Assembly: GCA_036874045.1 (NCBI GenBank) | Contig: JAZBRI010000008.1 | Location: 5,781,001 to 5,845,000, forward strand | DNA from: Cymodocea nodosa | Lineage: Eukaryota; Streptophyta; Magnoliopsida; Alismatales; Cymodoceaceae | Reading direction: 5' to 3' | DNA: 64,000 bases | Shown: positions 28,851-56,549 of the stretch, one piece after another | How positions within the stretch are numbered: the stretch's first letter is position 1 | Layout of the letters: the number at the start of each line of letters is the position of its first letter | The notes under the pieces: generated by a model | Databases searched by the model: none | Told to the model about the DNA's origin: nothing | What the model saw: the letters and a program-made list of their open reading frames with translations, nothing else | Made by a program: the position numbers and the translations under genes

Positions 28851-30408
28851 TATGTAATTAATCTTCTGTTATTTATTTATGAGCACATGGACTCATTTTC
28901 TAAGCACTAAGTGATTAGTAAGAACACCTATCTAGGAATTTTCATTACAGAGGAGTATTGAAAAATTTTCTAAACTGAACTTTAACGAAATTATTTGGGG
29001 TGTAGCTAACCTTTCTTTAAAAGAGAACGTAGAGATGGCTGCTCTAGTAGAAAAACCATTAGGAGAGATTCTGTATCTTGAATTAATTGATGAACCTTCA
29101 TGTATTCGATTGCCAAACTTTGACGGAGATAGGTTTGAATTGAAATCTAATTATATTAGTCAATTGCCACATTTTCATGGATTAGAAAGAGAGGATGCCT
29201 ATTATTTCCTTAGAGAATTTAACGAAGTTTGTCAAATGATGAGAATGCCGAACATGAGTATAGATGCTATTAAACTTAGATATATCCCTTTTGCTTTAAA
29301 AGATACAGCTAAAAGATGGTTATATACTCTGTCGCCTAATTCAATTTCTACATGGATTGAATTTTACTCTATTTTTCTGGAAAAATACTATCCAACACAT
29401 CAAACAATTAAAAGGAAGAAAGAAATATTAATGTGTAGCCAAAAATAGGGTGAATCATTCTAGAAATATTTTGAAAGATTTAAAGATTTACTAACTCAAT
29501 GTCCACTCATGCAATGAGTAAAGCACAATTAATAAGCATAATTTATGAAGGCATAGATGTTTCAACGAAATCTTTATTAGAATCTACTTGTCAAAATGGA
29601 TTTTTAAAATTATGTAGTGAAGAAGCATAGGCATATTTAGAAAATTTTGCAAAAGGAACTGCACAGTGGGAAAATTCGGCTGAAGCTATTATAGATAAAA
29701 GATTATTGCCAAGAGGAATGCATGAAATAGATTCCAATACTATACTTGAGGTGAAATTAAATGAATTAACGAAGAAAATATGAAGAGTTATCATTAAATC
29801 AAAAGCTAGCAGAAAAGAATACAAACATAAATGACTTAGATATTATTTATGCTAGAAACTAGAGAGATAACTTGGGAAATTCTTATAATCCTAATTGGAG
29901 AAATCACCCGAATTTATCTTGGAGAAACAACAATTTCCAAGGAGGAGAAAATATAAATGAGAAGAACATAAGTTATGAAGTATTAATTGAACAAGGAGCT
30001 AGAATAGAGAAATTAGAAAAGATAATCCAACAAGTAAACAATCGTCTAGAATTTATATTTGGAAATGATATAAATCAAAATTAGAATAGAAATATACCAC
30101 TTAGATAGAAGGAACCAATGGAAGTTAGACCTACTGGAGGATTGCCAATATAAGCTATACCTAATCCTGTCAATAGAACGGTTAATGAAATTGATACCTC
30201 TTCTAGGAGGGTAGTTGAATGAAGCAACATATCTGAAGCAACAATCTGGATGTATATATGTTTTTATTTTTATTTTAAGTTAATAGTATCGTAGAGTTAA
30301 TTTTTAACTCAACGAACTTAGTTCGTTGAGTTATGCCTTAACTCCACGAGGGTGTGCAGTAGTTATGTTAATTTTTGTCTCTACTAAATTTTTGTTTTTA
30401 TTTTACAG
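28850..30408 (+). other. Intron-like segment present in T2 and exactly absent in T4
   Basis: It begins GTATGT (28850) and ends with CTACTAAAT, a T-rich stretch and TTTTACAG (30381-30408), the pattern of a plant intron with branch point. In T4 the bases on either side are joined directly (between 48172 and 48171), with one base different at the junction. A second acceptor-like TTTTCATTACAG lies at 28939-28950, just upstream of the gag ORF inside the segment. This suggests an alternatively spliced gag exon. Splicing itself is not shown. Confidence 0.65.
29035..30225 (+). pseudogene. T2 Gag capsid region, placed downstream of pol
   Basis: It is a retrotransposon Gag capsid domain (PF03732-like): FHGLEREDAYYFLREF, IKLRYIPFALKDTAKRWLYTL and WIEFYSIFLEKYYP. 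Open reading runs for 137 codons, then degenerate sequence with stops (29446, 29628, 29860) and frameshifts (near 29510 and 29780). A later part reads SYNPNWRNHPNLSWRNNN (29881 on), normally found after the zinc knuckle in Athila Gag, then a short coil. No CCHC knuckle is present here; that motif is at the start of the pol ORF in T1, T3 and T4. In canonical elements all of this is one gene right after the PBS. Confidence 0.85.
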
Positions 30409-30417
30409 AATCAACAA

Positions 30418-31556
30418 ATGGAATTAATGCAATTACCGTTGGATGCACAAAGGGAAATAGTAAGTAACTTGTCAGCTAAAGATCTGTGCAGGATGTATTG
30501 TGTATCAAAGGAAATTAAAGACTGTATTGAAGAAAAATATTTTCAGGGACTACAAGCTGCAAAAATGACTAAGATTAGAGATGGATTCATATGGAGGTCA
30601 TTTAATCATAGTTCAAATACCCATGAATATTTGGCTATGGAAGAAACTACTGGAATTCCACCCAATGCATTAGAAGGAATGAGTCATATTATGGGGATAG
30701 ATGAAGGATTAATCATATACAAGACGAGACCAAGGTATGCAAGTTTATCATTACCTGAGATTTTGATAAGAAATCCTATAACAGGAGAAGAATATAATAT
30801 AGGAAGACCCAATATATTTGAAGCACCAACTGAAAATTGTGGGTCAGCTTTAATATTTTCTGATAAAAATTCTGCAATTCCTGAAAAATTATATTATTGG
30901 AGACCTACAGGAAATTGGGTGAAGATTTACGCTTAAGTATGTATAATTTTCTGAACAGATCTTGGAATGAAAACATTATAATATATCTAGGACATAAATC
31001 ATTAATTAACCAAACACATGTCATACTTAATGGTTATATTTATTTAGTCACAGAGATATCTATAGCATATAGATCTGATTTATACATAGTGAGCATAGAC
31101 AATTATGATGATTATACAGAAATTTTACCTGTACCAAGTGAAATAGCTAAACCACCATTTGAAAAATTTAATAAAATTCAAATAGGAATGTGGTATAATG
31201 AAGAAGATAATCCTACTTTATGTCTGATAAGATGGTGGGATGAATTGATGAAATTTCAAATATGGATTATAGAAGACATGAATGAATGGAAGTGGGAAGA
31301 GGAGTATATTGAAATAGATGTTGAAATAGAAACTACTACATTACCCTGGAACCAGAAAGGATCCCTTTCTGCATTACATATCATTAATGGTAATACACTC
31401 GTATTTGGAATTTATAATATATTGCATGTTTACAAATTAAAATGGACCAAGAACTGCATTAAAACAGAATTAATAGCAAGAAGAACTATACCTAAAAAGT
31501 TTGCTTGGACTGATACATTTATTCCATTTGTTTCTACTTTTCAATCATGTTCTTAA
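30418..31556 (+). pseudogene. T2 F-box protein gene carried by the retrotransposon
   Basis: It spans about 378 codons. An F-box motif opens the protein (LPLDAQREIVSNLSAKDLCRM.. residues 5-45; VSKEIKDCI). An F-box-associated-like beta domain follows (LIRNPITGEEYNIG about residue 115; LCLIRWWDELMKFQIWII about 265; LVFGIYNILHVYKL about 320). Proteins of this kind are SKP1-binding substrate adaptors of SCF ubiquitin ligases; the substrate cannot be told. One lesion is seen: a G-run of three instead of four near 30915-30918 shifts the frame, and the second half is open to 31556. The ATG lies ten bases after a splice-acceptor-like CAG. The T4 homologue (47022-48161) lies in the same element context. 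It could be degraded passenger DNA, but both copies are nearly open. Confidence 0.85.
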
Positions 31557-33346
31557 GCTGTGATTTTGTGTGTTTAATGTTGTGTATTCTGCATTTATTT
31601 TTAGAAAAAAAAAAAAGAATTTTGAAGTTTTTCATGTTCATTTTATAAAAAAAAAACAAAAAACAAACGAAACAAAATATCAATCCAGTTTGTTGGTATC
31701 TGTTCTGGGAAACCAACTAGCTTGCTTGTGAGCCACCAAAGGCATAGGAGCCTGGGTTCCACACAAGACACTGATTTATTAATATTTGTTAAATGTTATT
31801 TTGTTTTATATTCTGTGTTTATCTGGGAATGAAAAGTTTTTCAAAATCAAAAATCAGAATATGCAGAAAGAGATACAAATGGAACAAGGTATGTAACCAA
31901 TTACTTATCCTGAATTTTAAATCAAACAAAACTTTATTCATGCCTGCTACAATTACTGTACTTATTGTCAAATCTTTTACATTGAGGACAATGCAAAATG
32001 TAGGTATGGGGGGGAGGTAATTAAAGTAACAGCCATGTAAGTTTGTTAATTAAAGGAATTAAAATGGTACTGCAAAGTTTTGAGGAAATTGAAAATTTTT
32101 ATGAACTTGCTGTAATTATCCGATAATTGAGATTGTAAAATTTTTATAAACTGCTTGAATGTTATATTTAGAAGGCTATAGAAGATGCTATAGAATTTAT
32201 TATTTATGTAAATCTAGATATATTATCTTATGATTTTTCTGAATTTCATGAGTTTAATAGTTTCACGATTTTAAAATGAAATCAAAATATTTAATGCTTA
32301 ATTAGAAAATTATCTGAAGTCCTGAAGGAGCTGAGATGTGAATTCTAGATTAAATGAAACACATATGATGAAAGATACATTTACTTTGACTGATTGAACT
32401 TGTAGAATGATTTATGTGTAGGTCTTATTAAACTATAGATAAAGTATGAGCTTATTGTTATGGATTCATATCTTTAGTAAATGATAGAAGCAGGATTATA
32501 TGAGATTGGTGTTTTACTGCATCTATATTAATGAAATACGTGCATATACATTATGTGATTAATGTTTTGTTTTGTGAGTGCATTTATTTTTAGAAAAAAA
32601 AAAGAAGAAGAAAAAAAGAAAAGAAAAAAAAACCTTGAGAGTTTATTGACTTGTTTTATCACGAGCCTTTTGTACTTGAGTAGATAGGTATGTAAGGATT
32701 GTTGACCTAAAAAAGGACTCTGAAAATCTGGCAACCTAAGATCTTGATTAGATCTGGGATTGTTGACTGAAAGCTCGTTACATGGGTACATTAGAAAGCT
32801 CTTGCATGATTCAAGCTTGTAAAATTAACTTTTAAAGTACAAAAAAAAAAGAGAAAAAGAAAAAGAGAAAAACATATACTGTTCTGAAAAGATACAAGTG
32901 TTTTATGAAATACAGATATCTTATGAATCGAGTATATTTTCTGTTATCTAGAATTGCTGAAATATGAATCTGGAATTGACTTTTGAAGTTGTTTAATGGA
33001 AATACAATTCTTTATTCTACTTGTCTTAATCAGATTGAATTGGATTGTACTTTAATTTGTATGTTGTTGAAATTTTTTCTAGAAAAACTTATTGGAAAAT
33101 TCAAGATTACAGATGATGAAAAAAAGAACAAACGATAATATAATTAACACCTATATGAAGATGATATACTTTGTATGTAATTTACATATATTCTAAATAT
33201 CTTTGTAGGTTGATTACTGAAACATACAAAATATATGTTTATGCTAAATAGAAAAAAAGAAAAACAAAAGGGGAAGAATTAATTCTAGCACTTTTGAAAG
33301 ACCAATTAATTAGATCTTAGTTTGCTAAGGGACTAGCAAAATTTAG
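31557..33346 (+). other. T2 3' noncoding region with internal polypurine tract
   Basis: There is no supported ORF. A-rich runs lie at 31601-31612 and 31649-31668, right after the F-box stop. ACATTGAGGACAATGC followed by GGTATGGGGGGGAGG (32003-32017) is the block that precedes the polypurine tract in many Athila-type elements, yet the LTR starts only 1.35 kb later. Further A/G-rich runs lie at 32590-32640 and 32838-32870. Bases 32200-33345 have a counterpart in copia C2 (7400-6346). Confidence 0.8.
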
Positions 33347-33358
33347 GTATGGGGGAAG
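33347..33358 (+). other. T2 polypurine tract
   Basis: GTATGGGGGAAG lies directly before the 3' LTR start TGTTTAG. Confidence 0.9.
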
Positions 33359-35218
33359 TGTTTAGAATGAAAAAGTGCATATTATTAACAGTTAAATGAT
33401 GGTTAATTGCATAATATTTAGCTTATCATATGAGAATTAAGCCATTATGTTATAATTGCACTGTTATATGCTTTAATTAAAGAATCTGCTTAATTTTTGG
33501 GGAATTAATGTTAATTTAGTACATTTATGAACTGTCGGTAAATTGCAGGTTGTGAAATTCTTAAGTATCCGAAAATGCATTTGAGCATCAGATAGTTATA
33601 CCTGTAACTCTCCGAAATGTTATTTTATGTTTAAACTGCTGCTGACACGTGTTGAGAGCTGGTAGATTTACTTACGTTATAACTCATTAAGTTAGTATAA
33701 CTGCACGCGTTGAGTTACATGAAAATACACTAAGGCAACGCGTTAGGTTAGTGTTATAAACTTAAGTTGTTATTTTTGCACGTGTTTTATAGTTAAATCA
33801 ACGAAGAAAGTCCATTGAGTTATCTGTAACTCCACGGACTATATATTTTCTAATATGCCACTGTAGCGATTGCAAGAACAGACAGTTGGAAGGAAAAACT
33901 ACGTTCGCACGTATCACGTAGGAATTCAATCGCATAGGGAGAAAGAAATCATCGCCGTTGATCTGAAGGAAGGAAATCCAATCGATCATCCAAGCAGAAG
34001 CAGTTACCACTGAAGAAATATAAAAGAAAAGAAGAAAAAAGAAAGAGTGTGATCGATGGACGGCCAATGTATACAGAGGAGGAGCACCGAGCTTTCTGCA
34101 GACAATATCGGCGATTCTCCGAAGTATCACACCAACCATCATATCATCACCATAATCACCAATCATCGAAGTTCTGTGAGGATACTTACTTGATGTCGGG
34201 TCGATTCCGAGCCAAACACAGTGCCTGACAACCACTGTGAGGAGTGATCGCGTCGCGGGAAGGAAGACATTTTCACCAAGCGCCAACTCATATTTCAGAA
34301 GATCATAAAGCTTTTAGCCTTAGCTTCGGGTTGATGCCTGTATGCTGAAGAGGAGATCATCTTGCAATTCTAGACTCGCGATTCTATAGGGAGAGGAGAC
34401 AGAATTGTAAGTGGTTCAATTTTCAGTGGTGTAATCGCGTTGCAAGTAGTGTCGGAAGTATTTACTCTCAAGTGAAATTACTTTAAATTTCACCTTTCGC
34501 CCATTTCCATGTTCACATCAAAACAAAAATACCAAAAACAATTTATCTTTGTTTGTATGTTGTATTTGAGTGTTGTATTATTTGTGTTGTATTGTGATTA
34601 ATGTTATCTGTATCAGTTTTATGATTGTTGTATGTTAGTTTTAATTTTACAATTTACTGAAATTGGTTCGTACAAAACAACTTAAAGATTTTAATGGTTA
34701 CTGTTTGAATCATCTGAATGTTAGTATTGCATAATGATAAATCCAATGTTAACTAGCATTAAAAAGCTTAATTGATGTTATTTACAATCTGTGGAATCGC
34801 CCAATGGTTGGCCGAATTCCTCTGTAAATAGCAGTATTATAAAGAAGAGACAGGTCATGGAGTTAACTTAAGTCCACGAGGATAGTCCGTTGAGTTAGCC
34901 ATAACTTAACGAACTTAGTCCGTTGAGTTAACTATAACTCAACGGAGTGCTTATTGAATATAAATTTGAATTGTTCACAATCAAACATTTCTTAAATTCG
35001 TCAGCAATTCCCTGTGGGATCGACCTGTACTTGCACACTGATACAATAGACACTATGCACTTGCAGTTAAAGTACAAATTGGAATTAATATCTAAATTGT
35101 ATTAAAGGTTGTTTGTTTACTTCTAAAAGAAAGAATAGGCATAAAGATAAATTAACTAAGTAAAAATAGAAGTAACAAATCCAAGTTTTTCTAGTGTAGT
35201 GCTGGGAAAACACGAATA
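33359..35218 (+). repeat. T2 3' LTR
   Basis: It is 1860 bp. It starts TGTTTAGAATG; the end is GGGAAAACACGAATA, where T4 has …AAACA, so the final CA has mutated to TA. Possible TATA boxes are TATAAAA at 34019-34025 and TGTATACAG near 34068. The U5 end has the CCCTGTGGGATCGACCTG and GCACTTGCAGTTAAAG blocks shared by all Ty3 LTRs here. GTTGAGTTA and TCCACGAGG motifs lie at 34860-34945. A 162-codon antisense ORF (33798-34286) is not conserved in the other LTRs. Confidence 0.93.
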
Positions 35219-35223
35219 GAGGT

Positions 35224-35564
35224 ACACCTTCTATCATCTTTAAAGAGAACAGTTTCTACTTTAACAACAATTTGTTTGTTAAAGACTTAGTCATATACAA
35301 TGACTCAAGTTTCTGCCAAAGACCTAATGAGGTAGATTCATCAGCAACTTCTATTATAACTTCATCAGACAAACACAACAAGATGGTGGAGTGAGCTTTC
35401 TCCTCTTGCAATTCAAACTCTAGCGAATTTCTGTTCAGAGTAGTTTCCTTATTTAAAGGAGCCCAAATACCTTGTTGCTTTAGAAGTGCTTTCATCTTAA
35501 TTTGCCATAAGCTGAAGCTATTCTTACCATTAAACTTTTCTATCTTCAACCTTGAAGTATTCAT
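35224..35564 (-). pseudogene. C3 Gag N-terminal part
   Basis: It starts at the ATG at 35564 (MNTSRLKIEKFNGKNSFSLWQIKM, a typical copia Gag start) and runs through IWAPLNKE and LCLSDEVIIEVADE. The LWQKLESLYMTKSLTNKLLLK block follows, then a TAG near 35255. It continues at 20290 on the other side of T2. Confidence 0.9.
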
Positions 35565-36302
35565 GTTTTCAAAATAACAAACAACCAGCAATACACACGA
35601 GATACAATGTGATTTCAACAAACACAATTCTACGGCAAGGTACACAATAGCAAGCAATATCTCAACAATAATATGCTACTGAAACTACTGATTTCAACGA
35701 AATGCAATCAGCCACAAGCCAAGCACACTACTTAGCACAAAACAGTAGCAAATACTCGCACAAACCAAGCACAAAACCACAATCACAAAATGCCCAAAAT
35801 CCGACAATCAAAGAGTCACTCATCTAGAAAACTACTGTGCCCTAGCCAGACGCCTCCTACTGTATCTCTTTGAATACGAAACTTCTGACCACGAAATTTT
35901 AAAGGAAGGAAGTTCAGGAAGCTTACTACACGTCCTCAAAATTTGAGATGCAATGGAGCACAGACGAGGAAGGAACACGACTTGACATCGGAGTGTGCAA
36001 ACTGGCACCGGCGATGACAACAATTGCGGCAATGGGGGATATCCTTGCGGAAATAGCTTGAACCTTGATCAATCTCTTTGAAATTTTAAAGGAAGGAATT
36101 TCAGGAAGCTTACTACACGTCCTCAAAATTTGAGATGCAATAGAGTACGTACGAGGAAGGCGCACGACTTGGCGTCGGAGTATGCAGACTGGCGCCAGTG
36201 ACGACGGCAGTTACAACAATGGAGAGATCCCTTCTGGAAATGGCTTGAACCTTGATCAATCTCTTCAAAACTTCAGATTTAAACCTGGAGATGTCCAACC
36301 TC
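35565..36302 (-). repeat. C3 leader with a 187-bp tandem duplication
   Basis: Bases 35893-36079 and 36080-36262 are two copies of one unit, each beginning GAAATTTTAAAGGAAGGAA and containing CACACGTCCTCAAAATTTGA-type sequence. The copies differ at perhaps one base in eight, so the duplication is not new. The stretch 35565-35890 is AC-rich leader with no ORF that I support. Confidence 0.8.
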
Positions 36303-36314
36303 GCTCTGATACTA
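36303..36314 (-). other. C3 primer-binding site (initiator tRNA-Met)
   Basis: The minus strand reads TAGTATCAGAGC, two bases after the LTR, with one change from TGGTATCAGAGC. Confidence 0.88.
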
Positions 36315-36316
36315 GT

Positions 36317-36689
36317 TGTTGTGTGGAAAGATCAAATAAACGTGGAGCATCTAGGAGTGGCATGGAGAAGGGATCTGCATGGAAGAGAGGATTGCGAGTG
36401 GAGAATTCGAAGAACAACAAATTTACGTGGTTCCCCAACACGGGTACGTCCACGGGTGATCAATCTATCGTGATTCCTTGTTGTATGGTTGCTAGTACAA
36501 AGAAGGGGAAGAACAAAATCAAGGGATGGTTTGGCATGACATCCCTTGGAGGTGAATGACCCCTTACATATATAGGGGCAACGGTTGGTGATACCCAAAA
36601 GACAAGTTTGCCCCTGTACAAATTATCAAAGGAATACAACCATATTCAATGACACATACATATACTTGATGGAAGACACACGCATCACA
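36317..36689 (-). repeat. C3 5' LTR
   Basis: It is 373 bp and on the minus strand runs TGTGATGCG … CCACACAACA. A CTATATATG TATA-like box lies at about 36576-36568. Short antisense and sense ORFs here are also seen in the other LTR and are not genes. Confidence 0.9.
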
Positions 36690-38318
36690 ATAAGTATCCA
36701 AAATATCTGAACTCGTTAAGTTAGAATTATGCACGTGTTGAATTAAATGTTTTATTATGTCACATGAGATGCACATGTTTAACTTGAAAAGTTAGCATAA
36801 CTATACGTGGAGTTACATGAATATGCACTAAGGTAATTCTTGTGTTAGTGTTATAAGCTTATAAATTATTTCTTTATTACACGTGTTTTATAGTTAAGTT
36901 AACGAAGTAAGTCTATTAAGTTAACCATAACTCCATGGACCATTTATTTTCTAATATGCCATTGTAGCAATTGCAGAAATTGGAAATTTGAAAGAAAACC
37001 ATGATTGCATGTATCACGCAGGAATTCACTCGTGGAATGAAGAGAAAATCACCATTGTTGATATGAATGAAGGAAATTCAACCGATCATTTAAGTAGAAG
37101 CAATTATTATTGAAGAAAATATAAAAGAAGAAGAGAAAGATGAAGAAAAAGTGTGGGGAGAGTGGTGGAGAATTGTGCGAACTATAAGAAGCGTCGAAAG
37201 TTCTCTGAAGCTCCACACCACCACCAAAATCACCAACTATCAGAGGTCTATGAGGATGCTTTTTAGATGTCAAGTTGATTCTGAGCCAAACACAGTGACT
37301 GACAACCACTATGAGGAGTGATTGCATCGCAGGAAGGGAAGCCATTTTCACCAAGCACTGACTCATATCTCAAGAGATCGTAAAGCTTCTAACCTTGGTT
37401 TCGGGTTGATGCTAGTATGCTGAAGAGGAGATCAACTTACAATTCTTGGTTCATGATTCTATAGGAAGAGGAGGCAAGATTGTAAGTGATTAAGTTTTCA
37501 ATGGTGTAATTGCGTTGCATGTAGTGACAAAAGTTTTTACTGTTAATAGAGATTTTTACATTTCACCTTTCACTCATCTTCAAGAACAAATCAAAACAAA
37601 AATACCAAAAACAACTAATTATTTATGTTTACATTTAGTATTAAAGTGTTGTATTATTTGTTTTGTATCATGATTAATGTTATCATTGTTAGTATTGTAA
37701 ATGTTTTATGTTTGTTTTATTCAAAAAATAGAAAATAGTTTTATTATTTATTGAAATTGATTCATTCCAAATACTTAAAGATTTTAATTGTTACTATTTG
37801 AAATATCTAAATGTTAGTGTTGCTTAATGACAAATCTAATATTAACTAACATTAAAGAGCTTAATTGATGTTATTTACATTCTATGGAACTACCCAATGA
37901 TTGGCCAAATTCCTTTGTGAATTGTAATATTTAACTAGAAAGGTAGGCTCGTAGAGTTAACTTAAGTTCATGAGGTTAGTTTGTTGAGTTAACCATAACT
38001 CCACGAACTAAGTCCGTTGAGTTACAGTTAACTCAATGGAGTACTTAACTAAACACATATAAACTCGTATATAAAAATTGGAATAATACATAATTCTTAC
38101 TCAATCTCTATGGGATCGACTTGTACTTGCACACAAATATAATATATACTGTGCATTTGCAATTAAAATACAAATTGAATTTAATATCTAATTTGTGTGA
38201 AATGTTGTATGTTTACTTCTAAAAGTATTTATTAATATAAGTATAAAAAACAAATCAGACAAGTTTTCTAGCACCGACTAGTAGACAAGTTTCTGATTTA
38301 ACTTTTCACAACAATACA
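36690..38318 (+). repeat. T1 Ty3 LTR, right half
   Basis: It continues 15868-16268 after C3. The combined LTR is about 2.03 kb. TATAAAA lies at 37120-37126. The U5 block ATGGGATCGACTTGTACTTGC lies near 38108. GTTGAGTTA motifs lie at 37980-38045. It ends near 38318, before AAGTTTTTC and the PBS remnant. Confidence 0.88.
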
Positions 38319-38858
38319 AGTTTTTCTAGGGTCATTGTTGGGGATTGAAAAGCTAAGCAATTGTGAGTGTTGTTTTGTTTTAACATCAAAAGGAGTGTTG
38401 TGTGTTTTATTTTATAATTGAGAATATGACATATGCTTATGCTTAAAGATTTCTGAAACCTGTAGTTAGCATTTGTGAATTCTGCAATTTGGAAGGTCAT
38501 GACATCTCTGATTGTTTGAAACTGAGACGATTGCAGATGGTTAGATCACATGAACAACAAATGAATTATATTCAATAATAGAATTGAGTATGAGAATTCT
38601 ATAGTTTACTCAACTAATGGACAGTTTAGAACATGTAATATGTTGAGAGACAAGGAAGTTTGAGATAGGTATGACAGACTAGAGCGTAGTTTAGAGCAAA
38701 ACATAGACAAACTGGAATAATACATGTGTCAGCAACAAGAAGTCAACTAATTAAATTATAGAGAAGAATGTTCAAAACCTAAAATTGATATCATATACGA
38801 AACTGAAAAAACCATAATGAAAATTGATTAAAAATTGAATGCAATGAGACTAGATGAT
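38319..38858 (+). pseudogene. T1 PBS remnant and zinc-knuckle start of the pol ORF
   Basis: TAGGGTCATTGTTGGGGA (38327-38344) is a decayed tRNA-Asp PBS. The ORF start at 38425 (MTYAYA) is followed by an intact CCHC knuckle, CEFCNLEGHDISDC, about 20 residues in. Several stops follow before T3 interrupts it at 38859. It shows that in this family the zinc knuckle lies at the start of the ORF with no capsid domain before it. Confidence 0.85.
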
Positions 38859-41102
38859 TGTTTAGAATGAAAAAGTGCATAATATTAAGGGTTAAATGAT
38901 GGTTAATTCCATAATATTTAGCTTATCATATGAGAATTAAGCCATTATGTTATAATTGCACTGTTATATGCTTTAATGAAGGAATCTGCATAATTTCAGG
39001 GAATTAATGTTAATTAAGTATATTTCTGAACTATCGGTAACTTGCAGGCTGTGAAATTCTTAAGTATCCGAATTTTCTGTTATTTCGGAGAGTTATGTTT
39101 AATGTACCAAACAGTTATGTTTTAAATGCTTAAAGAATATTTTATTATTTCCTGGAGTACATGTGTTGTAACCATAATGCATGACTTAAGTGAATGTTCG
39201 GTAAGTTATTTGTTAACTATTTGAAATGCATCTGAGCAACAGATAGTTAAGGTTGTAAGTATCCAAAATATCTGAACTCATTAAGTTAGAAATATGCACG
39301 TGTTGAATTTAAATGCTTTATTATGTCATGTGAGCTGCACATGTTTAACTCGTTAAGTTAGTATAACCATACACATTGTGTTAGTGTTATGTAGAAATAG
39401 GTAAAGTAAACTTTCGGATAGTTAACATTTCATTTTAGTCGTAGAGTTATGTTAAAAACTCGTATAGTTAAATTATCTACACGTATGTTTTTAATGTTTT
39501 AAGTTGTTACGTGTTTTCCATGTGCGTTCGGTAATGAAAATCGAAGAGTTAGATAACTGTTTGAGTTTTTTTACGCATGGATAGATAATTGTTCGAGTCT
39601 TTATTAGATAACTGTTCGAGTTTTATAAAATGAGTAATGAATAGATAAGTTTTCTATGTTCAATCACATGTTTTGCAGGTGCAAAAACTTGAAGAGTTAC
39701 AGATAAGTGTTCGAGTTTTTACAAGACTTAAAGGATAAGTGTTCGATTAAAATGAAGACTAATATGCCAATGTAGTAGTTGTAGAAACAAGACATTCGAT
39801 GGAAAACCACGATTTCATGTATCATGCAGGAATTCACTCGTGGAAGGAAAAAGAAATCACCATCGTTGATATGAATGAAGGAAATCCAACTGATCATCTA
39901 AGCAGAAGCAGTTACTACTGAAAGAAATATAAAAAAGGAGGAGGAAGATGAAGAAAGTGTGGGTAGTGTGTGTAGAGGTGGAGAACCACACTAACTATAG
40001 GCAGCGTCGGAAGTTCCCTAAAGCTCCACACCACCACCATAATCACCAACTATCGAAGGCCTATGAGGATACTTTCCTAAAGTCGGGTCGATTCTAAGCC
40101 AAACACGGTGCCTGACAACCACTGTGAGAAGTGATCGCATCGCGGGAAGGGAAACCATTTTCACTAAGCATCGACTCATATCTCAAGAGATCGTAAAGCT
40201 TCTATCCTTAGTTTCGGGTTGATGCTAGTATGCTGAAGAGGAGATCATCTTGTAATTTTGGACTCGCGATTCTATAAGGAGAGGAGGCAAGATTGTAAGT
40301 GATTAAGTTTTCAATGGTGTAATCACATCACATGTAGTGATGGAAGTATTTACTGTCGATAGAGATTTTTACATTTCACCTTTCGTTCATCTTCAAGAAC
40401 ATATCAAAACAAAAATACCAAAAACAACAAATTATTTGTGTTTACATTTAGTATTTAAGTGTTGTATTGTTTGTTTGGTATCGTGATTAATGTTACCTTT
40501 GCCGGTATTATGAGTGTTTTATGTTTGTTTGATTCAGAAAATAGAAAATAGTTTTACAGTTTACTGAAATTGATTCGTTCTAGATACTTAATGATTTTAA
40601 TGGTTACTGTTTCAAAATATCTTAATTTTAGTGTTTCTTAATGATAAATCTAATATTAACTAACATTGAAGAGCTTAATTGATGTTATTTACAATCTGTG
40701 GAACCACCCAATGGTTAGCTGAATTCCTTTGTAAATAGCAATATTTAACTAGAAAGATAGGCTCGTGGAGTTAACTTAAGTCCACGAGGTTAGTTCGTTG
40801 AGTTAGCTATAACTTCATGAACTAGGTTCGTTGTGTTAACTGTAACTCAACGGAGTGCTTACTAAACACATATACTCTAATATAAAATTTAGAACAGTAC
40901 ACAATTCTTACTCAATCTCTGTGGGATCGACTTGTACTTGCACACAAATACAATATACACTATGCACTTGTAGTTAAAATACAAATTGGAATTAATATCT
41001 AATTTGTGTGAAAGGTTGTTAGTTTACTTCTAAAAGTAATTATTTATGTAAGCATAAAGACAAATTAAATAAGTAAAAACAGAAGTTAACAAACCCCAAA
41101 TA
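38859..41102 (+). repeat. T3 5' LTR
   Basis: It is about 2.24 kb and starts TGTTTAGAATG. It carries TATAAAA at 39928-39934, the U5 block TGTGGGATCGACTTG near 40920, and GTTGAGTTA / TCCACGAGG motifs at 40770-40860. Repeated GATAACTGTTCGAGTT-like motifs at 39550-39740 are specific to this LTR. The 3' end is set by comparison with T4 and is approximate. Confidence 0.88.
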
Positions 41103-41109
41103 AGTTTTT

Positions 41110-41127
41110 TGGCACCATTGCCAGGGA
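41110..41127 (+). other. T3 primer-binding site (tRNA-Asp)
   Basis: TGGCACCATTGCCAGGGA. It differs from the expected TGGCGCCGTTGCCGGGGA at three places, each a CG changed to CA. Confidence 0.85.
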
Positions 41128-41208
41128 TTGAGAAGTTAAGCAACTGTGAGTGCTATTTTGTTTTAATAGCAAGAGGAGTGTTGTGTATTTTATTCTATAA
41201 TTGAGAAT

Positions 41209-42355
41209 ATGGCATATGCTTATGCTCAAAGATTTCTAAAACCTGTAGTTAGCATATGTGAATTCTACAATTTGGAAGGTCATGACATCTCTGATTGTTT
41301 GAAATTAAGATGGTTGCAGATGGTTAGATCCTATGAACAACAAATGAATTATCTTCAATATAATAGAGTTGAGTATGAGAATCCTATAGTTTACCCAACT
41401 GATGGTCAGTTTAGAATGTGTAATATGTTGAGAGACAAGGAAGTTTGAGATAGGTATGACAGACTGAAGCATAGCTTAGAGCAAAACATGGATAAATTGG
41501 AATAATACATGTGGCAGCAATAAGAAGTCAACCAATTAAACTATAGAGAAGAATATTCAGAACTTAAAATTGATATCATTTACGAAATTGAAAAAACCAT
41601 AATGAAAATTAATCAAAAATTGAATGCAATGAGATTAGATAATCTAGAAAGAAAACTAAAAGTATTGGACGAATATACAATGAAATTACAAGTTACGCAA
41701 TAGGACAACAAAAATGAAAACTTTAATGTTACAGATTTGCATAATTTGGAAGATATACAGACAAAAGAAAATACCAATGCAATAGAATTTAAAGAATGCA
41801 ATTTAAAACTAAAAACAATTGAAGATCATAATCATGAAAATGATATACAAGAATATCATGAAAGTAACGAAAATCTGGAAGATGTATGTATAACATTAAG
41901 ATCTAGAACTGATATACCACCAAGAATTGAAAAAGAAAGTAATATGAAGGTGGATAAGAGCAAAAATCGAAATTATAAAGAAAATGTAATATCTGAAAAT
42001 ATAGAAATCAATGAAGAAAAATCTAAATCTAAAAATGATCAAACAAATCAAATGAAAGAAAAAGAATATTTTAAATCACAATCATTAGCACCCTATCTTG
42101 AAAGTTTACAACAAACATTTCCTAAAAAAAAGAAAAAATTAGAGAAATTTTTGAAAAAGTACAAGTTAACATTCCTTTGTTAAGCTTATTGTAGAAAATG
42201 CCACCTTGTGCTAAATTTCTTAAGGATAGGTGTACTAAGAAAAGAGAGCGAAAAGATTTAAGGAAAGTCTTTTTAGTTGACCAAAGTAGTTCCCTATTTC
42301 TGCCACAAATTCCTAAAAAGTTATCTGATCCTGGAATTCCTATTATATCATGCAC
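41209..42355 (+). pseudogene. T3 zinc-knuckle and Gag C-terminal region
   Basis: The ORF start MAYAYAQRFLKPVVSICEFYNLEGHDISDC has the CCHC knuckle with its second Cys changed to Tyr. A stop at 41446 follows, then coiled coil (LDNLERKLKVLDEY), LRSRTDIPPR (the LRSG box) and SLAPYLESLQQTF. A frameshift lies near 42130, then MPPCAKFLKD. It reaches the protease region, where T4 is inserted after TGCAC (42351-42355). It continues at 58721. Confidence 0.85.
42351..42355. repeat. Target-site duplication of T4 (TGCAC; right copy 58721-58725)
   Basis: TGCAC flanks T4. The T3 protease sequence runs from ..ATATCA-TGCAC to TGCAC-TATAGGACATACC, as in the uninterrupted T4 copy near 55260. Confidence 0.93.
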
Positions 42356-44590
42356 TATTTGGGTTTTCCCAGCACTACACTAGAAAAACTTGGATTTGTT
42401 ACTTCTGTTTTTACTTAGTTAATTTAGCTTTATGCCTATTCTTTCTTTTAGAAGTAAACAAACAACCTTTAATACAATTTAGATATTAATTCCAATTTGT
42501 ACTTTAACTACAAGTGCATAGTGTCTATTGTATCAGTGTGCAAGTACAGGTCAATCCCACAGGGAATTACTCAAGAATTTGAGAACTGTTCGTTTGTTAA
42601 CAATCAAATTTATATATTCAATAAGCTCTCCGTTGAACTACAGTTAACTCAACGGATAAAGTTCGTTGAATTATGGCTAACTTAACGGACTAACCTCGTG
42701 GACTTAAGTTAACTCCACGAACTTGTCTTTTCTTTTTAATACTGCTATTTACAGACGAATTCGGCCAACCATTGGGTGATTCCACATATTGTAAATAACA
42801 TCAATTAAGCTCTTTAATGTTAGTAAACATTGGATTTATCATTAAGCAATACTAACATTCAGATAATTCAAACCGTAACCATTAAAATCTTTAAGTCTTT
42901 TGAACGAACCAATTTCAGTAAACTGTAAAACTAAAATAAATATAAAACAATCACAGCACTGACAAAGATAACATTAATCACGATGCAACACAAACAATAC
43001 AACACTCAAATACAACATACAATATAGATAAATTGTTTTTGGTATTTTTGTTTTAATATGAACATGGAAATGGGCGAAAGGTGAAATGTAAAGTAATCTC
43101 ACTCGACAGTAAATACTTCTGACACTACTTGCAATGCGATTACACCACTTACAATTCTGTCTCCTCTCCCTATAGAATCGCGAGTCTAGAATTGCAAGAT
43201 AATCTTCTCTTCAGCATACAGGCATCAACCCGAAGCCAAGGCTAAAAGCTTTATGATCTCCTGAAATATGAGTTGGTGCTTGGTGAAAATGGCTTCCTTT
43301 CCCGCGACGCGATCACTCCTCACAGTGGTTGTCAGGCACTGTGTTTGGCTTAAAATCGACTCGACATCAAGAAAGTATTCTCACAGACCTCCGATGGTTG
43401 GTGATTATGGTGGATATGGTGGTGGTAACGATAGTTAGTGTGATACTTCAGAGAATCGCCGATACTATCTGTAGAAAGCTCGGTGCTCCTCCTCTATATA
43501 CACTGGCCGTCCATCGATCACACCCCCACTTCTTTTTCTTCTTTTCTTTTATATTTCTCCAGTAGTAACTGCTTCTGCTTGAATGATTAGTTAGATTTCC
43601 TTCATTCATATCAACGACGATGATTTCTTCTCCCTGCGTAATACATGCAATCGTGGTTTTTCTTCCAACTGTCCTGTTTCTGCAACTGCTATAGTGGCAT
43701 ATTAGAAAATTAATAGTCTGTGGAGTTACAGATAACTCAACGAACTTTCTTTATTGATTTAACTATAAAACATGTGCATAAATTTAAATATCCGATGCTT
43801 AGGTGCATTTTGGATACTTATAAACTTAACTATCCGATGCTTAGGTGCATTTCGGATACTTATAAACTTAACTATCTGATGCTCAGATGCATTTCGGATA
43901 GTTACAGCTAACTCATCGATATATAACTTAAGTAAATCTACCAAATCTTGACATGTGTCAATAGCAGTTTAATAATAAAATACCCATTTCGGAGAGTTAC
44001 AGGTCTAACTATCCGATGCTTAGATGCATTTCGGATAGTTACAGCTAACTCACAGAAAATCCACTTATGTCACTTTACCAGAACATGACACGTGTCCACA
44101 GCTATTTTATAAATAAAAAGAGATTTCGGAGGGTTACACATATAACTGTCCGATGCCCAGCTGCAATTTCAGATAGTTATAGATAACTCACCGAAAGTTC
44201 ACTTAAGTCATGCATTATGGTTTCGACACGTGAACTTCTGGAAATAATAAAATATTCCTTCAAAACATAACTGTTTAGCAATATAAACATAACTATCCGA
44301 CATGTTTGGTCTATTAAACATAACTGTACGAAATATATTTGGTATGTTAAACATAACTATCTGAAATATCAGAAAATTCAGATACTTAAGAATTTCACAG
44401 CCTGCAACTTACCAACAGTTCAGAAATGTACTAAATTGACATTAATTCCCCAAAATTAAGTAGATTCTTCAATTAAAGCATATAATAGTACAATTATAAC
44501 ATAATGGCTTAATTCTCATATGATAAGCTAAATATTATGCAATTAACCATCATTTAACAATTAATAATATGCACTTTTTCATTCTAAACA
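42356..44590 (-). repeat. T4 terminal full-length 3' LTR
   Basis: It is 2235 bp. The minus strand starts TGTTTAGAATG at 44590 and ends …GCTGGGAAAACCCAAATA at 42356. It has TATAAAA at 43553-43547. Three 42-bp units (CCGATGCTTAGGTGCATTT.., 43792-43917) lie in U3, against two in the 5' LTR. Confidence 0.9.
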
Positions 44591-44603
44591 GTCACATAAA
44601 ACT
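44591..44603 (-). other. 13-bp junction between two head-to-tail T4 LTRs
   Basis: The minus strand reads AGTTTTATGTGAC. The first nine bases equal the spacer plus the first two PBS bases that follow the 5' LTR at 56556-56548 (AGTTTTATG). The polypurine tract expected before an LTR start is absent. Confidence 0.85.
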
Positions 44604-45800
44604 TGTTTGTATTTTCCTAGCACTACACTAGAAAAACTTGGATTTGTTACTTCTGTTTTTACTTAGTTAATTTATCTTTATGCCTATTCTTTCTTTTAAA
44701 AGTAAACAAACAACCTTTAATACAATTTAGATATTAATTCCAATTTGTACTTTAACTACAAGTGCATAGTGTCTATTGTATCAGTGTGCAAGTACAGGTC
44801 GATCCCATAGGGAATTGCTCAAGAATTTGAGAACTATTCGTTTGTTAACAATCAAATTTATATATTCAATAAGCTATCCGTTGAACTACAGTTAACTCAA
44901 CGGATAAAGTTCGTTGAATTATGGCTAACTCAACGGACTAACCTCGTGGACTTAAGTTAACTCCATGAGCCGGTGTTTTCTTTTTAATATTGCTATTTAC
45001 AAACGAATTCAGCCAACCATTGGGCGATTCCACAGATTGTAAATAACATCAATTAAGCTCTTTAATGTTAGTAAACACTGGATTTATCATTAAGCAATAC
45101 TAACATTCAGATAATTCAAATAGTAACCATTAAAATTTTTAAGTCTTTTGAACAAACCAATTTCAGTAAACTGTAAAACTAAAACAAATATAAAACAATC
45201 ATAGCACTAACAAAGATAACATTAATCACGATGCAACACAAACAATACAACATACAATATAGATAAATTGTTTTTGGTATTTTTGTTTTAATATGAACAT
45301 GGAAATGGGCGAAATGTGAAATGTAAAGTAATCTCACTCGACAGTAAATACTTCCAACACTACTTGCAATGCGATTACACCACTGAAAATTAAACCACTT
45401 ACAATTCTGTCTCCTCTCCCTATAGAATCGTGAGTCTAGAATTGCAAGATAATCTTCTCTTCAGAATATAGGCATCAACCTGAAGTCAAGGCTAAAAGCT
45501 TTCTAATCTCTTGAAATATGAGTCAACACTTGGTGAAAATGGCTTCCCTTCCTGCGACGCAATCACTCCTCATAGTGGTTGTCAGGCACTGTGTTTGGCT
45601 CAGAATCGACCCGACATCAAGAAAGTATTCTCACAGACCTCCGATGGTTGGTGATTATGGTGGATATTGTGGTAGTAATGATAGTTGGTGTGATACTTCG
45701 GAGAATCGTCGATATTGTCTGTAGAAAGCTCGATGCTCCTCCTTTGTATACACTAGCCGTCCATCGATCACACACCCACTTCTTTTTCTTCTTCTTTTTT
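44604..45800 (-). repeat. T4 inner LTR, 5'-truncated
   Basis: It matches the 3' two thirds of the T4 LTR. Its proximal border lies in a T-rich stretch (45781-45820), where LTR sequence passes directly into internal 3' noncoding sequence. It has therefore lost about 670 bases of U3, the polypurine tract and some 500 bases of internal DNA, probably by a slip between A/G-rich runs. Confidence 0.85.
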
Positions 45801-47021
45801 CTTTTTTTCTTTTTTTGTACTTTAAAAGTTAATTTGACAAGCTTGAATCATACAGGAGCTTTCTAATGTACCCATGTAACGAGCTTTCAATCAACAATCC
45901 CAGATCTGATTAGGATCTTAGGTTGCTAGATTTCAAGAGTCCTTTTTCAGGTCAACAATCCTTACATACCTATCTGCTCAAGTACAAAAGGCTCATGATC
46001 AAACAAGTCAATAAACTCTCAAATTTTTCTTTTTTTCTTTCAATCAAAATACACACAAAACAAAGCATTAATCACATACTGTATATGTATGTATTTCATT
46101 AATACAGATGAAGTAAAACACCAATCTCATATAGTCTTGTTTCTATCATTTACTGAAAATATGAATCCATAATAATAAGCTCATACTTTTTCTGTAGTTT
46201 AATAAAATCTACACATAAATCATTCTACAAGTTCAATCAATCAAATTAAATGTATCTTTAATCATATGTGTTTTATTTAATCTAGAATTCACATCTCAGC
46301 TCCTTCAGGACTTCAGATAATTTACTAATTTTTCATTAAGCATTTTGATTTCATTTTAAAATCGTGAAACTATTAAACTCATGAAATTCAGAAAAATCAT
46401 AAGATACTATATCTAGATTTGCATAAATAATAAATTCTATAGCATCATATATAGTCTTCTAAATATAACATTCAAGTAGTTACAGATTATAAATTTTACA
46501 GTCTCAGTTATCAGATAGTTACAGCAAGTTCATAAAAATTTTCAATTTCCACAACTTTGCAGTACCATTTTAATTTCTTTAATTAATAAACTTACATGGC
46601 TGTTACTTTAATTACCTCCCCCCCATACCTACATTTTGCATTGTCCTCAATGTAAAAGATTTGACAATAAGTATAGTGATTGTAGCAGGCATGAATACAG
46701 TTTTGTTTGATTTAAAATTTAGGGTAAGTAATTGGTTACATACCTTGTTCTGTTTGTATCTCCTTCTACATATTCCAATTTTTGATTCTAAAAACTTTTC
46801 ATTCACAGATAAAAGCAAAATATAAAACAAAATAACACTTAACAGATATTGATAATTCAATGTCTTGTGTGGAACCTAGGCTCCTATGCCTCTAGTGGCT
46901 CACAAGCAAGCCAGTTGGTTTCCTAGAATAGATACCAACAAACTAGATTGATATTTTGTTTTTTTGTTTTTTTATACATAAAAGTAGAATACACACAACA
47001 TTAAACACACAAAATTACAGC
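45801..47021 (-). other. T4 3' noncoding region
   Basis: It is the counterpart of T2 31557-32850. The internal polypurine block GGTATGGGGGGGAGG lies at 46628-46614, preceded by CATTGAGGACAATGC. One of the two A-rich runs after the F-box stop is kept (about 46955-46975). Nothing coding is supported. Confidence 0.8.
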
Positions 47022-48161
47022 TTAAGAACATGATTGAAAAGTAGGAACAAATGGAATAAATGTTTCAGTCCAAGCAAACTTTTTAGGCATAGCTCTTCTT
47101 GCTATTAATTCTATTTTCATGCAGTTCTTGTTCCTTCTTAATTTGTAAACGTGTAATATATTATAAATTCCAAATACAAGTGTATTACCATTAATGATAT
47201 GAAATGCAGAAAGGGATCCTTTTTGGTTCCAGGGTAATGTAGCAGTTTCTATTTCTACATCTATTTCAATCTACTTCTCTTCCCACTTCCATTCATTTAT
47301 GTCTTCCATAATCCATATTTGAAATTTCATCAGTTCATCCCACCATCGTATTAGACATAAAGTAGGATCATCTTCTTCATTATACCACATTCCTATTTGA
47401 ATTTTATTAAATTCTACAAATGGTGGTTTAGCTATATCACTCGGTACAGGTAATATTTCTATATATTCATCGTAACTGTCTATGCTCACTATGTATAAAT
47501 CAAATCCAAATGCAATTGAAATATCTGTGACAAGATATATATATCTATCAAGTATGACATGTGTTTGGTTAATTAATGATTTCTGTCCTAGATATATCAT
47601 AATATTTTCATTCCAAGATCTATTTAGAAAATTATACACACTTAAGAGTAAATCTTCACCCCAATTTCCTATAGGTCTCCAATAATATAATTTTTCAGGA
47701 ATTGCAGAATTTTTATCAGAAAATATTAAAGCTAACCCACAATTTACAGTTGGTACTTCAAATCTATTAGTTCTTCCTATATTCCATTCTTCTCCTATTA
47801 TAGGATTTCTTATCAAAATATTAGGTAATAATAAACTTGCATACCTTGGTCTCGTCTTGTATATGATTAATCCTTCATCTATCCCCATAATATGATTTAT
47901 TCCTTCTAATGCATTGGGTGGAATTCCAGTAGTTTCTTCCATAGCCAGATATTCATGGGTATTTGAACTACGATTAAATGACCTCCATATGAATCCATCT
48001 CTAATCTTAGTCATTTTTACAGCTTGTAGTCCCTGAAAATATTTTTCTTCAATACAGTTTTTAATTTCCTTTGATACACAACACAGCCTGCACAGATCTT
48101 TGGCTGACAAGTTACTCAGTACTTCCCTTAGTGCATCCAATGGTAATTGCATCAATTTCAT
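47022..48161 (-). pseudogene. T4 F-box protein gene carried by the retrotransposon
   Basis: It is the homologue of the T2 gene. It starts at the ATG at 48161 (MKLMQLPLDALREVLSNLSAKDLCRL.., F-box in residues 5-45) and is open for 296 codons through the region shifted in T2, up to a TAG at 47271-47273. Beyond it the same frame stays open to TAA at 47022-47024 (GIYNILHVYKL, FIPFVPTFQSC). So T4 has a nonsense change and T2 a one-base deletion, at different places; the family had an open gene of about 378 codons. By eye, aligned parts differ at roughly 12-13% of residues, against 7-8% for RT. The ATG follows leader sequence directly, without the T2 intron-like segment. Confidence 0.87.
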
Positions 48162-49025
48162 TTGTTGATTCAGTCTAAAGCTTTCCGTTTAGTAAATATT
48201 TGTTGTCGGATGAAGTTGAATCAACTGCTTCTCCTTCCAGTTCCTCCAAAGCATTCTCCTTTCTTTTAAAAGTGCTGGTAACTCATAAATAACATTCTGA
48301 TTTATATATATAATGTACATCCATAAAGTGAATAAATCTCGTTGCAAGAATGTGTCTTGCAACGTGCATCGTGGTTCCTGTTTTTATGGGTACGTGTATC
48401 ACTATTAATTTTAAATTTTGGTAACCGCTAAACCGACAAAGTTTCGTTGAGTCACAGATAACTCAATGGAACATAGTCGGTTACTATTGCTAACTCCATG
48501 GACTAACTTCGTTGAGTCACAGATAACTCAATGGAGTGACCTTATATTATATTACTGACCTCGTGGAGTTACGGTTAACTCAACGAACTTACTTCGTTGA
48601 GTTAACACTTAGCAACCTCTAAGTTTTACTCTCGTAAATTCCTCTCTGTTCTTTTCTATTTCATTCTACTAACTGAAATAAAGTTAAATCTATTTCATTA
48701 ATGCATCCTTCTAATTAAAATACGTTTAAATCTGAACATTATATAAAGATTTAACTTGCAGGTCATTTTATGTTATACAGAATTTACATTTTACCTTGCA
48801 ACATGCAGAAATTTTTAAGTATTTATCCTATCATTCAGAAAATTGTAAATTTGTTACATATTCATTCATAAAGTTCCATAAATTACATAATATTCAATAA
48901 ATTCCATTTATTTCATATTCAAAACACGTATGAAAATTACATCTGAAAAATTATATTCATTAATATGAATCAATTACATTACAAATACATTATACAATTT
49001 TACACAAGTAGACGAACAATACACT
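48162..49025 (-). promoter_or_regulatory. T4 leader and spacer upstream of the F-box gene
   Basis: It is the counterpart of T2 27935-28849. TAACTCAACGA / GTTGAGTTA motifs lie at 48440-48605. The GTTGCAAGA … TCTTGCAAC inverted repeat is kept near 48348-48370. The short upstream ORF of T2 is broken here. T2's intron-like segment would lie between 48172 and 48171. Confidence 0.6.
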
Positions 49026-56531: not shown

Positions 56532-56549
56532 TCCCCGACAATGGCGCCA
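56532..56549 (-). other. T4 primer-binding site (tRNA-Asp)
   Basis: The minus strand reads TGGCGCCATTGTCGGGGA, 16 of 18 bases as expected for tRNA-Asp, seven bases after the LTR end. Confidence 0.9.

What the first reader, a model, noticed from the sequence alone, without database searches (positions are those of the whole stretch)
30418..48161. A plant F-box gene carried as cargo by an Athila-like Ty3 retrotransposon family
Two elements (T2, plus strand; T4, minus strand) with different TSDs carry homologous F-box ORFs of about 378 codons (30418-31556 and 47022-48161). Both lie at the same place, between the third ORF and the polypurine tract. Each copy has one lesion, at different sites (a one-base deletion near 30916; a TAG at 47271), so the family mobilised an open gene. 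Seen directly: position, ORFs and lesions. Known: F-box proteins are SCF ubiquitin-ligase adaptors, and some viruses encode F-box proteins that redirect host turnover. Inference: the retrotransposon may use the adaptor, for example against a silencing factor. A stable, transmitted cargo gene in Athila would be unusual. Caution: by eye the F-box copies differ more (about 12-13% of residues) than RT (about 7-8%), so strong constraint is not shown.
Basis: partly seen in the sequence, partly recalled or inferred. Interest (0 to 1): 0.92.

Follow-up and report, generated by a model that had tools for sequence, protein, structure and literature searches.

The report
Retrotransposon carrying an F-box gene
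A plant jumping-gene family carries its own version of a plant protein-destruction adaptor gene (F-box), keeps it under natural selection, and appears to make it by splicing out the element's capsid gene, which sits in an unusual place inside an intron.

Summary
Two Ty3 (Athila-like) elements, T2 and T4, with different 5-bp target-site duplications carry homologous F-box genes at the same internal place. A whole-genome search scored 132 copies (capped). In the 90 I read, the ORF is open (378-379 aa) in 22. Variants found in one copy look neutral (omega-like 0.99); variants shared by five or more copies show constraint (0.45, P=0.0005), much like gag in the same loci (1.10 and 0.57). That argues strongly against neutral hitchhiking.

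New here: T2 holds 1,559 bp that T4 lacks. This is a GT-AG intron, and it contains the gag capsid ORF. Of 90 copies, 14 have the exons joined at the same base and show no clustering on the F-box tree, so spliced genomic RNA was probably reverse-transcribed repeatedly. The capsid gene, which precedes RT in 8 of 8 relatives showing it, here lies about 8 kb downstream of a 5' zinc-knuckle/pol ORF, behind a TATA box kept in 57 of 58 loci.

Best reading: a selected accessory gene expressed by splicing. Promoter use, SCF action, target and donor gene are inferred or unknown.

The parts
20291..20941 (+). T2 5' LTR, first 651 nt; the rest of the LTR and the leader are deleted
   Evidence: 95.9% to 33359-34009; TSD GAGGT at 20286-20290
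20942..25076 (+). T2 gag C-part/PR-RT-RNaseH-integrase region, with lesions
   Evidence: RVT_1, RT_RNaseH, rve in Pfam
26041..27935 (+). T2 third ORF region (ORF3), broken by stops
   Evidence: 16% diverged from T4 ORF3
28366..28525 (.). array of palindromic motif CGTTGAGTTA/TAACTCAACG before the downstream unit
28707..28715 (+). TATA box of a putative internal promoter
   Evidence: TATATATA kept in 57 of the 58 loci (of 90) that align here; seen in the 14 intronless copies
28740..28849 (+). putative 5' UTR exon 1 (start inferred from the TATA box); ends at the splice donor
   Evidence: donor GT at 28850 kept in 43 of 44 aligned unspliced loci
28850..30408 (+). intron (1,559 nt, GTATGT...TTTTACAG) that holds the gag capsid ORF
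   Evidence: absent with the exons joined in T4 and in 14 of 90 loci in all, T4 included
29035..30225 (+). gag capsid ORF (Retrotrans_gag), broken in T2
   Evidence: PF03732 E=7.7e-7 for the T2 piece, 2.2e-21 for a longer genomic copy; 150 scored copies
30409..31556 (+). T2 exon 2 with F-box ORF 30418-31556; one-base deletion near 30916
32008..32017 (+). polypurine tract-like stretch downstream of the F-box
   Evidence: sequence
33350..33358 (+). polypurine tract adjoining the T2 3' LTR
   Evidence: sequence
33359..35218 (+). T2 3' LTR, followed by TSD GAGGT
56557..58720 (-). T4 5' LTR; PBS at 56532-56549
51690..56415 (-). T4 zinc-knuckle (NC) ORF and PR-RT-RNaseH-integrase; no capsid match here
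49026..50900 (-). T4 ORF3 region
48170..48171 (-). T4 exon 1-exon 2 junction where the gag intron has been removed exactly
47022..48161 (-). T4 F-box ORF, TAG at 47271-47273
42356..44590 (-). T4 3' LTR, next to TSD TGCAC; preceded by a partial extra LTR 44606-45811

Best explanation
An Athila-like Ty3 family in this plant carries an F-box/FBA-like gene as a true accessory gene. Shown: the gene is present in 132 scored copies; in the 90 read it lies just behind a gag intron (or the exon that remains when the intron is gone), and its widely shared variation is constrained. Shown: it is exon 2 of a downstream unit whose exon 1 ends at GTATGT and whose 1.56-kb intron contains the gag capsid ORF; copies with this intron cleanly removed exist. 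Strongly indicated: these come from reverse transcription of spliced full-length RNA, more than once; and the capsid gene has been split from the zinc-knuckle/pol ORF at the 5' end and moved behind ORF3. Inferred: an internal TATA promoter starts a short RNA; unspliced it makes capsid, spliced it makes F-box protein, so one intron sets the balance. Inferred: the F-box end binds SKP1, and the more constrained C-terminal part picks a host (or element) protein for SCF ubiquitination, most likely one that restricts the element.
For: 132 scored F-box matches; ORF open at 378-379 aa in 22 of 90. Allele-frequency test, 91 copies: singletons omega-like 0.99, alleles in 5+ copies 0.45, P=0.0005; with 20 different intact copies as codon background 0.95-1.00 and 0.40-0.50, P at most 0.001 for 5+. 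Gag (64 copies): 1.10 and 0.57. Transversions alone: singletons N/S 74/26, alleles in 2+ copies 12/13, P=0.016. Stops mostly arose separately: the commonest, codon 311, in 17 copies with at least 16 changes; codon 43, 9 and 9. Donor GT 43/44, acceptor AG 67/76. Exons joined at the same base in 14 of 90, 8 of them letter for letter; 12 changes on the tree, shuffled labels 10-14. Sequence upstream of the TATA box kept in 14 of 14 intronless copies. NC ORF to F-box: 8.96-11.8 kb in 11 intron-bearing pairs, 7.9-8.4 kb in 4 intronless pairs; NC to capsid 8.0 and 8.25 kb in the 2 pairs found. Capsid N-terminal of RT in 8 of 8 relatives with a capsid hit. F-box PF00646 about 2e-10.
Against: No transcript or protein data. 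The N-terminal part, with the F-box motif, shows no clear constraint (5+ class 0.63, P=0.08; 2+ class 0.97), and variants in 2-4 copies look neutral for the whole gene (1.01). For transversions, singletons against the 5+ class alone is not significant (P=0.29). In gag, nonsense changes are not depleted among shared variants (7 against 6.5 expected in 5+, 19 against 15.4 in 2+), and only 2 of 64 gag copies are open. 66 of 91 F-box copies hold an in-frame stop. FBA models stay below their cut-offs. Copies were ranked by similarity to the T4 F-box, which inflates apparent integrity. The test treats sites as independent and uses biallelic sites only, which leaves out some stop sites such as codon 311. 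The two-copy test alone is not significant. No host donor, SKP1-binding test or target.
Confidence: 0.77

Rival explanations
1. Neutral hitchhiking: a host gene fragment was transduced once and has been copied along without a role.
For: The two window copies alone do not reject neutrality (P=0.087); 66 of 91 copies carry a stop; the F-box end and the 2-4-copy variants show no clear constraint.
Against: Widely shared variants are constrained (0.45, P=0.0005; 0.40-0.50 over 20 backgrounds) about as strongly as gag in the same loci, while singletons are neutral; 22 of 90 ORFs open; stops are mostly separate events.
Confidence: 0.07
2. The F-box serves the element's own bookkeeping: it directs turnover of the element's own Gag or Pol, or limits copy number, and does not attack a host defence.
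For: It shares one exon-intron unit with the capsid gene, so the two products would be co-regulated; no host target is known.
Against: Nothing direct. The weak FBA-type C-terminal match gives no hint of target.
Confidence: 0.3
3. The downstream capsid unit is a fusion with another element, and an autonomous partner family with capsid in the normal place supplies Gag; the F-box copies are passengers of a non-autonomous family.
For: Intronless copies, T4 with its own TSD among them, lack a gag capsid of their own, so Gag can be supplied in trans; the capsid search listed only the best 150 matches, all at least 91% identical, so diverged capsids would not show.
Against: 75 of 77 unspliced sequences have capsid next to the F-box; gag shows the same kind of constraint; no match to the first 137 residues of the capsid in the 5' regions of T3, T3a or T4; the 2 position pairs put capsid 8 kb downstream of NC.
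Confidence: 0.2
4. The intronless copies come from ordinary DNA deletions and not from splicing.
For: Deletions occur in this family: T2 has lost most of its 5' LTR and leader.
Against: The same GT-AG join in 14 of 90 copies (8 letter for letter, 6 with one or two substitutions), not clustered on the tree; the acceptor ranks 1 of 944 AG sites.
Confidence: 0.02

Closest known systems
Sense additional ORFs (env-like aORFs) of Athila/Calypso/Bagy2-type plant elements (PMC7264820, parts 1-2 of 3 read)
   Same: Extra ORF in sense between pol and 3' LTR; splicing reported for Bagy2.
   Different: Those described there are env-like or of unknown role. Here the ORF has a recognised F-box domain, and a separate ORF3 is present as well.
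Transduced host genes in plant LTR elements (Bs1 and others, cited in PMC7264820); the retrogene in Tpb1-1 (PMC1142308, passages)
   Same: Host-type gene inside an LTR element.
   Different: [quoted passage not shown] here 132 were scored, with constraint.
Ty1/copia shGAG splicing (PMC8892269, passages)
   Same: Splicing sets the ratio of Gag to other products.
   Different: There the spliced RNA makes Gag; here splicing would remove the capsid gene and make F-box.
Ogre intron (PMC6317226, passages) and the Diaspora proposal of env loss by anomalous splicing (PMC1142308, passages)
   Same: Intron in a plant Ty3 element; spliced genomic RNA giving rise to new element forms.
   Different: [quoted passage not shown] here the intron holds the capsid gene behind ORF3, and its loss is seen in 14 of 90 copies.
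Polerovirus P0 (search listing only; that P0 is an F-box protein acting on AGO1 is recalled)
   Same: Mobile parasite with an F-box adaptor, a functional parallel.
   Different: No homology shown; no target known here.

Membership tests
LTR retrotransposon, Ty3 type | LTR pair, TSD, PBS, PPT, RT-RH-IN order | tested here: met
Athila clade | No additional RNase H domain (its presence marks Tat, PMC6317226, passages) | tested here: inconclusive
   Pfam shows no second RNase H in the pieces scanned; the one RVT_3 hit is weak and lies inside RH; pol is broken, so not all of it was scanned
Athila clade | RT phylogeny groups with Athila | not tested
   no labelled Athila/Tat set was aligned
Athila clade | capsid 5' of RT in gag-pol | tested here: not met
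   capsid sits behind ORF3 in T2 and next to the F-box in 75 of 77 unspliced sequences; 8 of 8 relatives with a capsid hit (of 120 held) have it before RT
F-box protein | F-box domain above curated cut-off | tested here: met
   PF00646 31.1-41.4 bits against 20.5 in five sequences
F-box-associated (FBA) subfamily | FBA_1 / F_box_assoc_1 above curated cut-off | tested here: inconclusive
   best of 3 open copies scanned: 18.5 of 21.1 bits and 30.2 of 37.9 bits
SCF ligase adaptor | binds SKP1 and recruits a substrate | not testable with these tools
   fold prediction failed (mean pLDDT 33.6)

The most novel reading that the evidence does not exclude
A plant retrotransposon family has evolved a retrovirus-style accessory gene: a captured E3-ligase adaptor kept under selection to degrade a host factor. 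It is expressed from a second promoter by splicing away a capsid gene that was split from gag-pol and moved downstream, so one intron trades structural protein against host manipulation.
Probability: 0.4. Interest if true: 0.95.

Novelty: new variant of a known kind. Interest (0 to 1): 0.87.

Why it matters
Many plant LTR elements have extra ORFs of unknown role. Here one has a recognised domain, a selection signal and a splicing route, so accessory-gene function in a plant retrotransposon becomes directly testable. If it acts through SCF, it would be a retrotransposon parallel to viral F-box proteins and to retroviral accessory proteins that hijack ubiquitin ligases (recalled). The relocated, intron-borne capsid gene would also be a new way to set the ratio of Gag to other products.

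Tried and rejected
Protein relatives of the F-box: none at E<=0.01, none at E<=10 with a three-sequence alignment. That database does hold plant proteins, but it needs shared 5-letter words, so distant F-box relatives would be missed. Viral contigs: none with F-box, pol or capsid queries. PDB sequences: no F-box protein among the weak matches. Structure prediction of the T4 piece: mean pLDDT 33.6, not used. Host donor by FBA_1 search of the genome: no match, and the control genomes were silent too, so uninformative. By F_box_assoc_1: 145 matches (150 of 1,635 candidates scored; control genomes silent), of which 9 have a capsid (4) or NC (5) match of the family upstream on the same strand (wrong-side control 0 and 0); the rest are undecided because the capsid and NC lists are capped. 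No free host gene was shown. Genome-wide count of junction versus acceptor: the pattern searches did not complete.

My own errors and limits: the NC queries were in a wrong frame, so their NC results are void; one search used the right frame. The script counted 9 intronless copies because its pattern was too strict; reading its rows gives 14. One search's nonsense list holds an artefact (codon 297, T4 background). One search's single-background nonsense figure (0.28) becomes 0.28-0.48 over 20 backgrounds and uses biallelic sites only. One search compared only 39 of the 150 capsid positions; one search used all lists. Splice-site matrices are recalled. Of the 132 F-box matches, 42 were not read.

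Literature searches that gave no F-box gene as cargo of an LTR element: (listings; open-access library only).
Full report
What is there. The window is a stretch of nested LTR elements: G000 contig 8, 5,781,001-5,845,000, in a 374.6-Mb assembly of 28 contigs. T2 (+) and T4 (-) are Ty3 elements with different 5-bp TSDs, GAGGT and TGCAC. T4 sits inside another copy of the family, T3/T5. LTR pairs differ by K2P 0.043 (T2, 651 columns) and 0.058 (T4, 2,114 columns).

The gene is cargo on a large scale. A search of the genome with the T4 F-box piece scored 132 matches, the best of 6,373 first-look candidates; one is T4 itself, and the other 131 are 89-94% identical over nearly the whole query. T2's own broken copy is not among them. 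I read the first 90 (L001-L090; L001 is T4). In 22 of 90 the ORF runs open for 378 or 379 codons from its ATG. Because copies were ranked by F-box similarity, this fraction is biased upward.

Selection. For two copies the signal is weak: NG86 omega 0.51 (bootstrap 0.32-0.86), but P=0.087 when the mutation spectrum is kept. Across 91 copies (90 loci plus T2), biallelic sites were split by how many copies carry the rarer letter. Singletons, which mostly arose after insertion, match neutral expectation (164 nonsynonymous, 55 synonymous, omega-like 0.99, 234 sites). The 2-4 class is also neutral (1.01, 104 sites). Letters shared by five or more copies show 55 and 38 (0.45, P=0.0005, 95 sites). With each of 20 intact observed copies as codon background the values are 0.95-1.00, 0.90-1.02 and 0.40-0.50, with P at most 0.001 for the last. 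With transversions alone, singletons are 74/26 and shared (2+) 12/13, P=0.016, though 1 versus 5+ alone is not significant (P=0.29). Gag in the same loci (64 of 77 sequences with 90% coverage) gives 1.10, then 0.52 (2-4 copies) and 0.57 (5+); its nonsense changes are not depleted. In the F-box gene the constraint lies in the C-terminal part (0.35); the N-terminal part with the F-box motif gives 0.63 (P=0.08). An own in-frame stop is present in 66 of 91 copies, but the stops look like separate events: codon 311 in 17 copies with at least 16 changes, codon 43 in 9 with 9, codon 193 in 9 with 8; over 12 nonsense sites the mean is 0.92 changes per copy, against 0.67 at synonymous sites.

The intron. 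T2 and T4 align through ORF3 and its 3' spacer and again through the F-box, but T2 has 1,559 extra bases, 28850-30408, that read GTATGT...TTTTACAG. The acceptor is the best-scoring of 944 AG sites in the T2 internal region; the donor ranks 26 of 526 (matrices recalled), and T2's last exon base differs from the G found in most copies. Unspliced copies keep the donor GT in 43 of 44 alignments and the acceptor AG in 67 of 76. Fourteen of 90 copies have exon 1 joined to exon 2 at this place: 8 read GACTG/AATC letter for letter and 6 with one or two substitutions. No clustering was detected: 12 changes on a FastTree tree of 89 copies (L038, with a deleted junction, left out), against 13.3 on average (10-14) for shuffled labels. 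The tree is built from one short gene and is weak in detail. Sequence upstream of the TATA box is kept in all 14, and the end of ORF3 in 12 (plus a 51-nt piece in one more; none in L003). So the RNA that was reverse-transcribed began upstream of the internal promoter: spliced genomic RNA. Only T4 among the 14 was checked for a TSD.

The capsid gene is in the intron. The T2 intron holds a Retrotrans_gag ORF (PF03732). The capsid search scored 150 copies (cap; 5,522 candidates). Of 77 unspliced sequences (76 loci and T2), 75 have the capsid match upstream of the F-box. In the window no match to its first 137 residues is found in the 5' regions of T3, T3a or T4 (tblastn E<=1); these start with a short ORF holding a CX2CX4HX4C zinc knuckle, intact in T3a. 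Among 120 relatives held from the protein search, 8 have a capsid hit, and in 8 of 8 it precedes RT in the same ORF. Genome positions agree: of 150 NC-ORF matches and 132 F-box matches, 19 same-strand pairs lie within 13 kb. One is in the wrong order (-5.4 kb), 4 intronless copies are at 7.9-8.4 kb, 11 intron-bearing copies at 8.96-11.8 kb, and 3 not fetched at 9.63-9.95 kb; one opposite-strand pair is the control. The 2 NC-capsid pairs are at 8.0 and 8.25 kb, with one opposite-strand pair as control; the 7 capsid-F-box pairs are at 1,350-1,380 bases, with none on the opposite strand.

Promoter. About 140 nt before the donor is a TATA box, kept in 57 of the 58 loci (of 90) that align there. 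Upstream lies an array of the motif CGTTGAGTTA/TAACTCAACG, which also fills the LTRs and the pol-ORF3 spacer and is absent from T2 pol, ORF3 and F-box: 111 sites in 64 kb against 4.65 in mononucleotide shuffles. A start site here is inference; no RNA was seen.

What the protein is. F-box domain well above cut-off. The C-terminal part matches the F-box-associated models below cut-off (TIGR01640 E 2.6e-7, 2.3e-5 and 4.1e-3 in three copies; FBA_1 0.002 and 0.044 in two of three). No near protein relative was found. A scan of the genome with the F_box_assoc_1 model gave 145 matches, 9 of them demonstrably beside this family's capsid or NC ORF; whether any is a host gene is open.

How it most likely works. 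Shown: presence in many copies, constraint on shared variation, a used intron, capsid inside it. Inferred: a downstream RNA makes capsid when unspliced and F-box when spliced; the F-box protein docks on SKP1 and its C-terminal part selects a substrate. A host restriction or silencing factor is the most natural substrate, by analogy with polerovirus P0 (recalled; listing). Host FBW2, an F-box protein that targets AGO1 (PMC9035678, abstract), shows that such a route exists in plants. Self-regulation of Gag is the main rival.

Literature. In PMC7264820 (parts 1-2 of 3) transduced genes are said to be in one or a few copies and sense extra ORFs are described as env-like. PMC6317226 (passages) surveys plant LTR elements and has no 'F-box'. 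PMC1142308 (passages) proposes env loss by anomalous splicing and mentions a retrogene in Tpb1-1. PMC8892269 (passages) describes spliced shGAG. PMC11963269, PMC2410132 and PMC7730604 (term searches) have no 'F-box'. Searches listed no paper that presents an F-box gene as cargo of an LTR element; this covers open-access papers only, judged from titles and abstract starts.

Change after checking: the count of intronless copies that keep ORF3 was lowered from 13 to 12 (plus a fragment), the junction is letter-exact in 8 of 14, and confidence was set at 0.77 in place of 0.78.

Noticed in passing
2651-3147, 13772-14391, 20617-20768, 25418-25507, 28366-28525, 30290-30348, 33708-34944 and others: Motif CGTTGAGTTA/TAACTCAACG, often as a palindrome with a 4-nt centre, 111 times in 64 kb against 4.65 expected. 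It is shared by a Ty1/copia element and the Ty3 family and clusters in LTRs and spacers.
   Followed up: partly
6352-7146 and 32362-33209: A Ty1/copia element T1 (SIRE-like by its layout, recalled) and the Ty3 element T2 share a non-coding stretch (68-78% identical), and their downstream ORFs look related by eye (NKIQINWF...KLFYGD): possible module exchange between superfamilies.
   Followed up: partly
25908-25925: A second PBS-like site (2 mismatches to the T4 PBS) lies inside T2 just before ORF3.
   Followed up: no
26041-27935 vs 49029-50900: The ORF3 module and its 5' spacer differ by 16-18% between T2 and T4, while pol differs by 4-5% and F-box by 7%: the elements look like mosaics.
   Followed up: no
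44606-45811: T4 has a partial extra LTR directly before its 3' LTR although its TSD is intact, so either the element transposed in that form or it was rearranged afterwards.
   Followed up: no
F-box codon 311 in L001-L090: A stop at this codon (mostly TGG to TAG) occurs in 17 of 90 copies with at least 16 separate origins on the tree: a hot spot that looks like cytosine deamination.
   Followed up: partly
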